From: Woeseiaceae bacterium
Lineage (GTDB): Bacteria; Pseudomonadota; Gammaproteobacteria; Steroidobacterales; Woeseiaceae
Direction of reading: 5' to 3'
Length of the DNA stretch: 41,531 nucleotides
Assembly: GCA_021773155.1 (NCBI GenBank)
Contig: JAJFKQ010000260.1
Coordinates: 1 to 41,531 of the forward strand
Numbering within the stretch: the first letter of the stretch is position 1; each line of letters begins with the position of its first letter. The notes under the pieces were generated by a model. The model was not told the origin of the DNA and searched no databases. It was given only the letters and a program-made list of their open reading frames with translations. Shown here piece after piece: positions 25,412 to 25,834 of the stretch. Both the position numbers and the translations under genes were made by a program.

Positions 25412-25834
25412 TTAGATAGAACCACCGCAAGAACCTTCACCACAGCTACCTTCGGCATCTTTCTCGCCGTCGTCAGCTTTGTCGCCGCCGCAAGAACCTT
25501 CGCCGCAGCTTCCTTCGCCTTCTTTATCACCAGCTTCGCCGCAGCTTCCTTCGCCTTCTTTATCACCAGCTTCGCCGCAACTGCCTTCGCCTTCTTTCTC
25601 GCCAGCTTCGCCGCAACTTCCTTCGCCGTCTTTCTCGCCGCAACTGCCTTCAGCGTCTTTGTCGCCGCCGCAAGAGCCTTCGCCCTCACCCAGCATGTAA
25701 CCAACGGTCAGGCTTGACATCGCAAACGGGCTGTCGATGGAATCTGCATTTACAGTACCACTGATAGCGAACGTTCCGGCCAGTGCCGCTCCTACAGCTA
25801 AAGCTACAGGCTTAATAATTTTTTTCTCTGACAT
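25412..25834 (-). CDS. Exported low-complexity peptide with nine EGSCG motifs, HvfA/BufA2-like putative RiPP metallophore precursor
   Basis: MSEKKIIKPVALAVGAALAGTFAISGTVNADS signal-like leader, then EGSCG x9; all nine Cys lie in this motif. Good RBS (GTAGGAGAGAAACAAAATG). HvfA-type precursors have the same leader style with EGKCG repeats. Confidence 0.8.
   Translation of the reverse strand: MSEKKIIKPVALAVGAALAGTFAISGTVNADSIDSPFAMSSLTVGYMLGEGEGSCGGDKDAEGSCGEKDGEGSCGEAGEKEGEGSCGEAGDKEGEGSCGEAGDKEGEGSCGEGSCGGDKADDGEKDAEGSCGEGSCGGSI
25501..25608 (-). repeat. 36-bp in-frame tandem repeat (two identical copies plus one diverged)
   Basis: cgccgcagcttccttcgccttctttatcaccagctt at 25501-25536 and 25537-25572 are identical; 25573-25608 is a diverged third copy. 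Confidence 0.9.

What the first reader, a model, noticed from the sequence alone, without database searches (positions are those of the whole stretch)
25412..25834. Orphan EGSCG-repeat peptide resembling a copper-related RiPP precursor, with no maturase nearby
The sequence shows a 140-aa peptide with a signal-like leader, then nine EGSCG motifs; every cysteine is in this motif. Known HvfA/BufA2-type precursors carry EGKCG repeats whose cysteines are modified to oxazolone/thioamide by a DUF692 (MNIO) enzyme with a DUF2063 partner, normally encoded next to the precursor. Neither is recognisable in this 41.5-kb window, and the motif has Ser in place of Lys. Inference: either the maturase acts in trans from another locus, or this is an unmodified acidic Cys-rich metal/oxidant buffer. 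Both would be new variants of the theme.
Basis: partly seen in the sequence, partly recalled or inferred. Interest (0 to 1): 0.85.

Follow-up and report, generated by a model that had tools for sequence, protein, structure and literature searches.

The report
Copper-peptide precursor with its enzyme elsewhere
A marine bacterium makes a secreted, cysteine-rich peptide of a known copper-binding family, but the enzymes expected to convert its cysteines sit at a distant place in the genome, and both places carry the same rare control sequence, so they are probably switched on together.

Summary
The peptide is real: 140 aa, nine EGSCG motifs holding all nine cysteines, under purifying selection. 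It matches the HvfA-family repeat domain (NCBIfam NF050137, above cut-off). It is not an orphan. The same genome (Woeseiaceae, 77% complete) has one MNIO (HvfB equivalog), followed by DUF2063 (HvfC) and DoxX (HvfX), on another contig with no precursor beside it.

The split is conserved across the genus and most examined families of the order. The peptide follows an ECF sigma factor and a DUF3379 anti-sigma factor. The maturation genes follow DUF1841. A promoter-like element, GTAATAA-N15-GGTC, precedes both operons, always with spacing 15. In this genome it occurs exactly twice, at these two places. Best reading: the anti-sigma factor senses an envelope or metal signal, and the freed sigma factor switches on precursor and trans-acting maturase together. 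The maturase would make Cys-derived thiooxazoles, and the exported peptide would buffer copper. The chemistry, inducer and copper role are inferred from studied relatives.

Ser before Cys is the rule in this genus (about 84%) and Lys in most order relatives; the relative FonBC accepts Ala and Thr there. Stand-alone precursors were already known. The stable split with a shared dedicated promoter, and the EGSCG version, were not found in the held literature.

The parts
25412..25834 (-). EGSCG-repeat precursor peptide of the HvfA family (Sec-like leader, PFAMSSLTVGYML recognition-like motif, nine EGSCG)
   Evidence: (NF050137 above cut-off)
25364..25386 (-). intrinsic terminator just after the peptide gene (GC hairpin then T7 read on the - strand)
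   Evidence: one search lists the hairpin on the + strand; the - strand reading AGCCCGCGCAAATAGCGCGGGCTTTTTTT is
25857..25872 (-). small hairpin TGCCC/GGGCA-type between anti-sigma gene and peptide gene, conserved in the genus
   Evidence: 33 of 35 loci by eye; one with a compensatory change
25895..26626 (-). DUF3379 membrane anti-sigma factor: cytoplasmic HxxxCxxC, one TM helix, periplasmic domain with invariant H122, C166, H175
26623..27138 (-). ECF sigma factor (PRK12517 subfamily), 4-bp overlap with the anti-sigma gene
27146..27171 (-). promoter-like element GTAATAA-N15-GGTC, 7 nt before the sigma start codon; the only other copy in the genome is 28 nt before the MNIO start codon
27309..27337 (-). 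second conserved box GGAACT-N17-CTCATA (RpoE-like), overlapping the annotated 5' end of hemB

Best explanation
The peptide is a precursor of the HvfA/Buf_EGKCG family, matured in trans by the single HvfBC-type MNIO complex of the genome as part of a two-operon regulon under one ECF sigma factor. Proposed working: (1) a periplasmic metal or thiol signal acts on the DUF3379 anti-sigma factor through its invariant His/Cys residues (inferred); (2) the released sigma factor transcribes its own operon (sigma, anti-sigma, precursor) and the distant MNIO-DUF2063-DoxX operon from matching GTAATAA-N15-GGTC promoters (sequence evidence shown, use of the promoters inferred); (3) the MNIO-DUF2063 pair binds the precursor leader and converts the Cys of each EGSCG into a thiooxazole (inferred from FonBC, HvfBC and BufBC); (4) the peptide is exported by Sec and sequesters copper in the periplasm (inferred from bufferins and oxazolins). 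Serine in place of lysine is an accepted substrate variant in this lineage.
For: Family: NF050137 match above cut-off. Trans enzymes: one PF05114 and one PF09836 in the genome, adjacent, with DoxX; NCBIfam equivalogs HvfB 420 bits (cut-off 360), HvfC 283 (142), HvfX 130 (80). No second precursor in the genome by NF050137 or DUF2282. Split conserved: hemB / sigma-antisigma-peptide-glycosylase in essentially all congeners and DUF1841-MNIO-DUF2063-DoxX at a separate place; 55 of 60 named Woeseiaceae-type loci keep the peptide after the anti-sigma gene, and 4 of the 5 exceptions lie on short or cut loci. Shared promoter: 35 of 37 sigma and 36 of 48 MNIO upstream regions carry the element, spacer 15 in every case, shuffles 0.005-0.015, and 0-1 hits per set for six other upstream sets. 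In this genome spacing 15 occurs only at these two sites; 61 congeners average 3.2 sites against 0.87 for the reversed control. Joint loss: 33 congeners have both parts, 2 have neither, 1+1 discordant (Fisher p = 0.013, not corrected for relatedness); one reduced genome keeps DUF1841-element-DoxX with MNIO and DUF2063 gone. Substrate fit: the MNIO keeps the RR and D-F residues described for Lys-Cys type enzymes (PMC13097082), and FonBC accepts Ala, Arg and Thr at the Lys position; Ala and Thr are among the residues seen in this genus besides Ser.
Against: No experiment. Ser itself was not among the FonBC variants reported as tolerated. The equivalog model of HvfA proper is not met (16 against 95 bits). 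The genome is 77% complete, so a second MNIO or another substrate could be missing. Some order relatives lack the element before the MNIO gene. The sigma factor's own promoter specificity has not been tested; the element is assigned to it by position and co-occurrence.
Confidence: 0.8

Rival explanations
1. The peptide is exported unmodified and its free thiols buffer metal or oxidant; the MNIO operon serves another substrate.
For: No biochemical proof of modification; the HvfA equivalog model is not met; free Cys-rich acidic peptides can bind metal (general knowledge).
Against: Shared dedicated promoter, joint presence and loss, shared leader motif with EGKCG precursors, no other NF050137 or DUF2282 substrate in the genome, and DUF1841 rather than a small Cys-rich ORF before the MNIO gene.
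Confidence: 0.1
2. Same trans-maturation system, but its main role is oxidative/hypochlorite stress or another metal (gold, zinc), not copper. (Compatible with the trans-maturation part of the best explanation.)
For: The corresponding operon of Haemophilus is controlled by an ECF sigma factor answering hypochlorite (PMC7907618); the anti-sigma factor has a cytoplasmic HxxxCxxC motif as in zinc/redox-sensing anti-sigma factors (general knowledge); DoxX is linked to oxidative or sulphur stress (PMC12452194).
Against: Characterised products of this enzyme group bind copper (PMC13097082, PMC12452194).
Confidence: 0.3
3. The separation is an assembly effect: a precursor gene next to the MNIO was lost at a contig end, and the window's peptide is a second copy.
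For: MNIO lies 0.5 kb from the end of an 11.3-kb contig in a fragmented genome.
Against: The gene before the MNIO is DUF1841 here and in nearly all congeners, many on contigs over 100 kb, without a precursor; precursors lie deep inside contigs of 140-690 kb without an MNIO.
Confidence: 0.02

Closest known systems
Oxazolin / HvfABC(X) of Haemophilus influenzae
   Same: Sec leader, repeated E-G-x-C-G core, HvfB, HvfC and HvfX equivalogs, ECF sigma control of the operon
   Different: precursor not in the enzyme operon; Ser instead of Lys; precursor sits in the sigma/DUF3379 operon; precursor falls below the HvfA equivalog cut-off
Fontiphorin (FonABC) and the captophorin class (5-thiooxazole peptides)
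   Same: E-G-x-C-G repeats, MNIO with RR and D-F substrate-site residues, PME1 (DUF2063) partner
   Different: not clustered; EGSCG not reported as tested with FonBC and not found in the held literature
Buf_EGKCG/oxazolin precursors without neighbouring MNIO (Legionella and others, PMC12452194)
   Same: stand-alone precursor with MNIO elsewhere in the genome
   Different: there left open whether modified in trans; here a fixed, genus-wide two-operon arrangement with a common promoter element
Bufferin 1 (gig) operons with sigma factor and NrsF anti-sigma factor
   Same: ECF sigma/anti-sigma pair linked to a metal-buffering RiPP precursor
   Different: precursor is DUF2282 there; anti-sigma factor is NrsF, not DUF3379; enzymes are in the same cluster

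Membership tests
HvfA-family / Buf_EGKCG precursor (NF050137 KCGExKCG_twice) | repeat-domain model above curated cut-off | tested here: met
   39.2 bits against 19.5
HvfA-family / Buf_EGKCG precursor (NF050137 KCGExKCG_twice) | Lys before the modified Cys (EGKCG) | tested here: not met
   9 of 9 are EGSCG; Ser predominates genus-wide. The family model still matches, so the Lys is typical rather than required; claimed only as a Ser-type variant
HvfA-family / Buf_EGKCG precursor (NF050137 KCGExKCG_twice) | Sec signal peptide | tested here: inconclusive
   n-, h-, c-regions and VNA/D site by eye, conserved; no signal-peptide predictor available
HvfA-family / Buf_EGKCG precursor (NF050137 KCGExKCG_twice) | MNIO and PME1 (DUF2063) in the same genome | tested here: met
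HvfA-family / Buf_EGKCG precursor (NF050137 KCGExKCG_twice) | precursor gene directly before the MNIO gene (typical, not universal) | tested here: not met
   different contigs here and in congeners; known to be absent in part of the family (PMC12452194)
HvfA-family / Buf_EGKCG precursor (NF050137 KCGExKCG_twice) | Cys converted to thiooxazole (4-Da loss, 305 nm) and copper binding | not testable with these tools
   needs expression and mass spectrometry
HvfA equivalog (NF050188) | full-length model above cut-off | tested here: not met
   16 bits against 95
HvfB / HvfC / HvfX maturation proteins | equivalog models above cut-off | tested here: met
   420/360, 283/142, 130/80 bits
Bufferin 1 (DUF2282) | PF10048 match | tested here: not met
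   no match in the genome

The most novel reading that the evidence does not exclude
A copper-buffering RiPP pathway permanently divided into two distant operons held together by a private ECF promoter, with a new type of periplasmic metal-sensing anti-sigma factor (DUF3379 with an invariant His/Cys set) that measures copper and whose output is the buffer peptide itself; the Ser-type core would give the mature peptide metal affinity or charge different from the Lys type.
Probability: 0.35. Interest if true: 0.7.

Novelty: new variant of a known kind. Interest (0 to 1): 0.55.

Why it matters
The recent survey of MNIO clusters left open whether precursors without a neighbouring MNIO are modified in trans or not at all (PMC12452194). 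This lineage gives a clean case: one precursor, one maturase, far apart in dozens of species, with a shared control element found only at those two places in this genome. It makes the question testable with four genes, and it offers a promoter pattern for pairing other stand-alone precursors with their enzymes. Woeseiaceae are common in marine sediments (general knowledge), so the pathway may be widespread there.

Tried and rejected
Searched the GGAACT-N17-CTCATA box as the common promoter: it precedes the sigma operon but not the MNIO operon and is unique in the genome, so it does not link the two loci. DUF1841 upstream region as promoter of the maturation operon: no shared element. Foldseek of the anti-sigma model against PDB: no significant match (best E 0.06, RseB, partial), so its sensor fold stays unassigned. 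Literature on DUF3379: none held. EGSCG as a RiPP motif: no relevant hit in the held literature. Looked for a third conserved regulon member downstream of further GTAATAA-N15-GGTC sites: only scattered genes in one or two species each.

Full report
What is there. On the minus strand at 25412-25834 an ORF of 140 aa begins with a Sec-like leader and carries nine EGSCG motifs that hold all nine cysteines. It is a gene: its leader evolves with dN/dS 0.04-0.16 relative to congeners, more than 2000 relatives exist in protein collections, and a terminator follows it. It matches NCBIfam NF050137, the repeat domain of the 'HvfA family oxazolone/thioamide-modified RiPP metallophore', above its cut-off, but not the HvfA equivalog model.

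Its operon. Directly upstream on the same strand are a DUF3379 protein (25895-26626) and an ECF sigma factor of the PRK12517 subfamily (26623-27138), overlapping by 4 bp; the peptide start codon lies 60 bp after the DUF3379 stop. The DUF3379 protein has a cytoplasmic HxxxCxxC motif, one predicted membrane helix and a periplasmic domain in which H122, C166 and H175 are invariant in 47 sequences from Woeseiaceae to Alteromonadales. That it is the anti-sigma factor and a metal or redox sensor is inference from gene order and these residues.

The enzyme is not missing. The genome (2.7 Mb, 77% complete) has exactly one MNIO hit and one DUF2063 hit, adjacent on contig C233, followed by DoxX. NCBIfam names them HvfB, HvfC and HvfX with scores well over the cut-offs. 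The gene before them is DUF1841, and no precursor lies there. No other NF050137 or DUF2282 precursor was found in the genome.

The split is old and stable. In 60 relatives, 43 genomes had the precursor and 51 the MNIO. Reading the neighbourhoods, the order hemB (divergent), sigma, anti-sigma, peptide, 3-methyladenine glycosylase is kept through the genus, and most of it in relatives from other families of the order, while DUF1841-MNIO-DUF2063-DoxX stands elsewhere. In one order relative (G044) precursor and MNIO are adjacent. Named records show the family to be Woeseiaceae; 55 of 60 Woeseiaceae-type loci have the peptide after the anti-sigma gene, and of the five without, four lie on short or cut loci. 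Two congeners whose precursor was missed by the model have it when read directly. In a class-wide sample, 36 of 56 precursor genomes have a precursor within 3 kb of a listed MNIO; the MNIO listing was truncated, so this is a lower bound. Adjacency is thus the commoner state and separation the recurrent minority.

The two places share a control element. Aligning upstream regions showed GTAATAA-N15-GGTC before both operons. It is found before 35 of 37 sigma genes and 36 of 48 MNIO genes of the genus and order, always with a 15-nt gap; shuffled sequences give 0.005-0.015 hits per set, and the upstream regions of peptide, anti-sigma, hemB, aroE, DUF1841 and the glycosylase give 0-1. In this genome the element with a gap of 15 occurs twice, before sigma (27146-27171) and before the MNIO (C233:10752-10777). 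In 61 congeners the mean is 3.2 sites per genome against 0.87 for the reversed control, and 21 genomes have exactly two. Since the element precedes the sigma gene itself, I take it to be that sigma factor's autoregulated promoter; this is inference. The constant distance of 7 nt from GGTC to the sigma start codon suggests a leaderless message.

Joint loss. Among 37 congeners 33 have both parts, 2 have neither, 2 are discordant in incomplete assemblies (relatedness not corrected). In the reduced genome G011, DUF1841 and DoxX are still side by side with the element between them, but MNIO, DUF2063 and the precursor are gone.

Serine for lysine. In Woeseiaceae loci the residue before Cys-Gly is Ser 347, Lys 29, Ala 23, Gly 6, Thr 3, others 3; in most other families of the order it is Lys. 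The leader motif PF-x(5,7)-GY is common to both types (42 of 44), as are the enzyme's RR and D-F residues, which in FonB lie next to the substrate Glu and Lys (PMC13097082; positions matched by motif, the FonB sequence itself was not aligned). FonBC modified Ala, Arg and Thr at the Lys position and was severely impaired with Glu and Phe. Ser should therefore be acceptable; it was not reported as tested.

Mechanism and confidence. I commit to trans maturation within a two-operon ECF regulon (0.8). Shown: gene content, conservation of the split, shared element, joint loss. Inferred: sigma specificity, signal, thiooxazole formation, Sec export, copper buffering. The physiological stimulus may be oxidative rather than copper, since the Haemophilus operon answers hypochlorite through an ECF sigma factor (PMC7907618).

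Novelty. Stand-alone precursors and clusters with several precursors were known; sigma/NrsF pairs were known in Buf1 clusters. Not found in the held papers: the DUF3379 link (no paper holds the term), the EGSCG core, and a promoter tying a distant maturase to its precursor. This is a new variant of a known kind.

Noticed in passing
window 25857-25872: Small hairpin (GCCC...GGGC) about 30 nt before the peptide start codon, present by eye in 33 of 35 congeners with one compensatory change (TCCC/GGGA); may set peptide output relative to sigma and anti-sigma.
   Followed up: partly
window 27309-27337: Conserved RpoE-like box GGAACT-N17-CTCATA on the sigma strand, overlapping the annotated start of hemB; unique in the genome.
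   Followed up: partly
L282:1158-2039: Reduced relative G011 keeps DUF1841-element-DoxX with MNIO and DUF2063 deleted, suggesting DoxX has a use of its own in this regulon.
   Followed up: partly
L225-L244: Alteromonadales (Glaciecola, Alteromonas, Salinimonas) carry the homologous sigma factor, many with a recognisable DUF3379 partner, but no EGxCG peptide in the fetched flanks; their targets are unknown.
   Followed up: no
G106:C20, G253:C8, G183:C146, G153:C27: In other Gammaproteobacteria DUF3379 genes lie about 2 kb from a different MNIO gene, so this anti-sigma family may regulate MNIO pathways more widely.
   Followed up: no
L288 and L294: Small secreted protein (..VKEFxGxGNTTT..FTVESPWL..) downstream of an extra GTAATAA-N15-GGTC site in two congeners; possible third regulon member.
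   Followed up: no
window 27138-27171: Sigma start codon lies 7 nt after the GGTC box, with fixed spacing in nearly all relatives, pointing to a leaderless sigma mRNA.
   Followed up: partly
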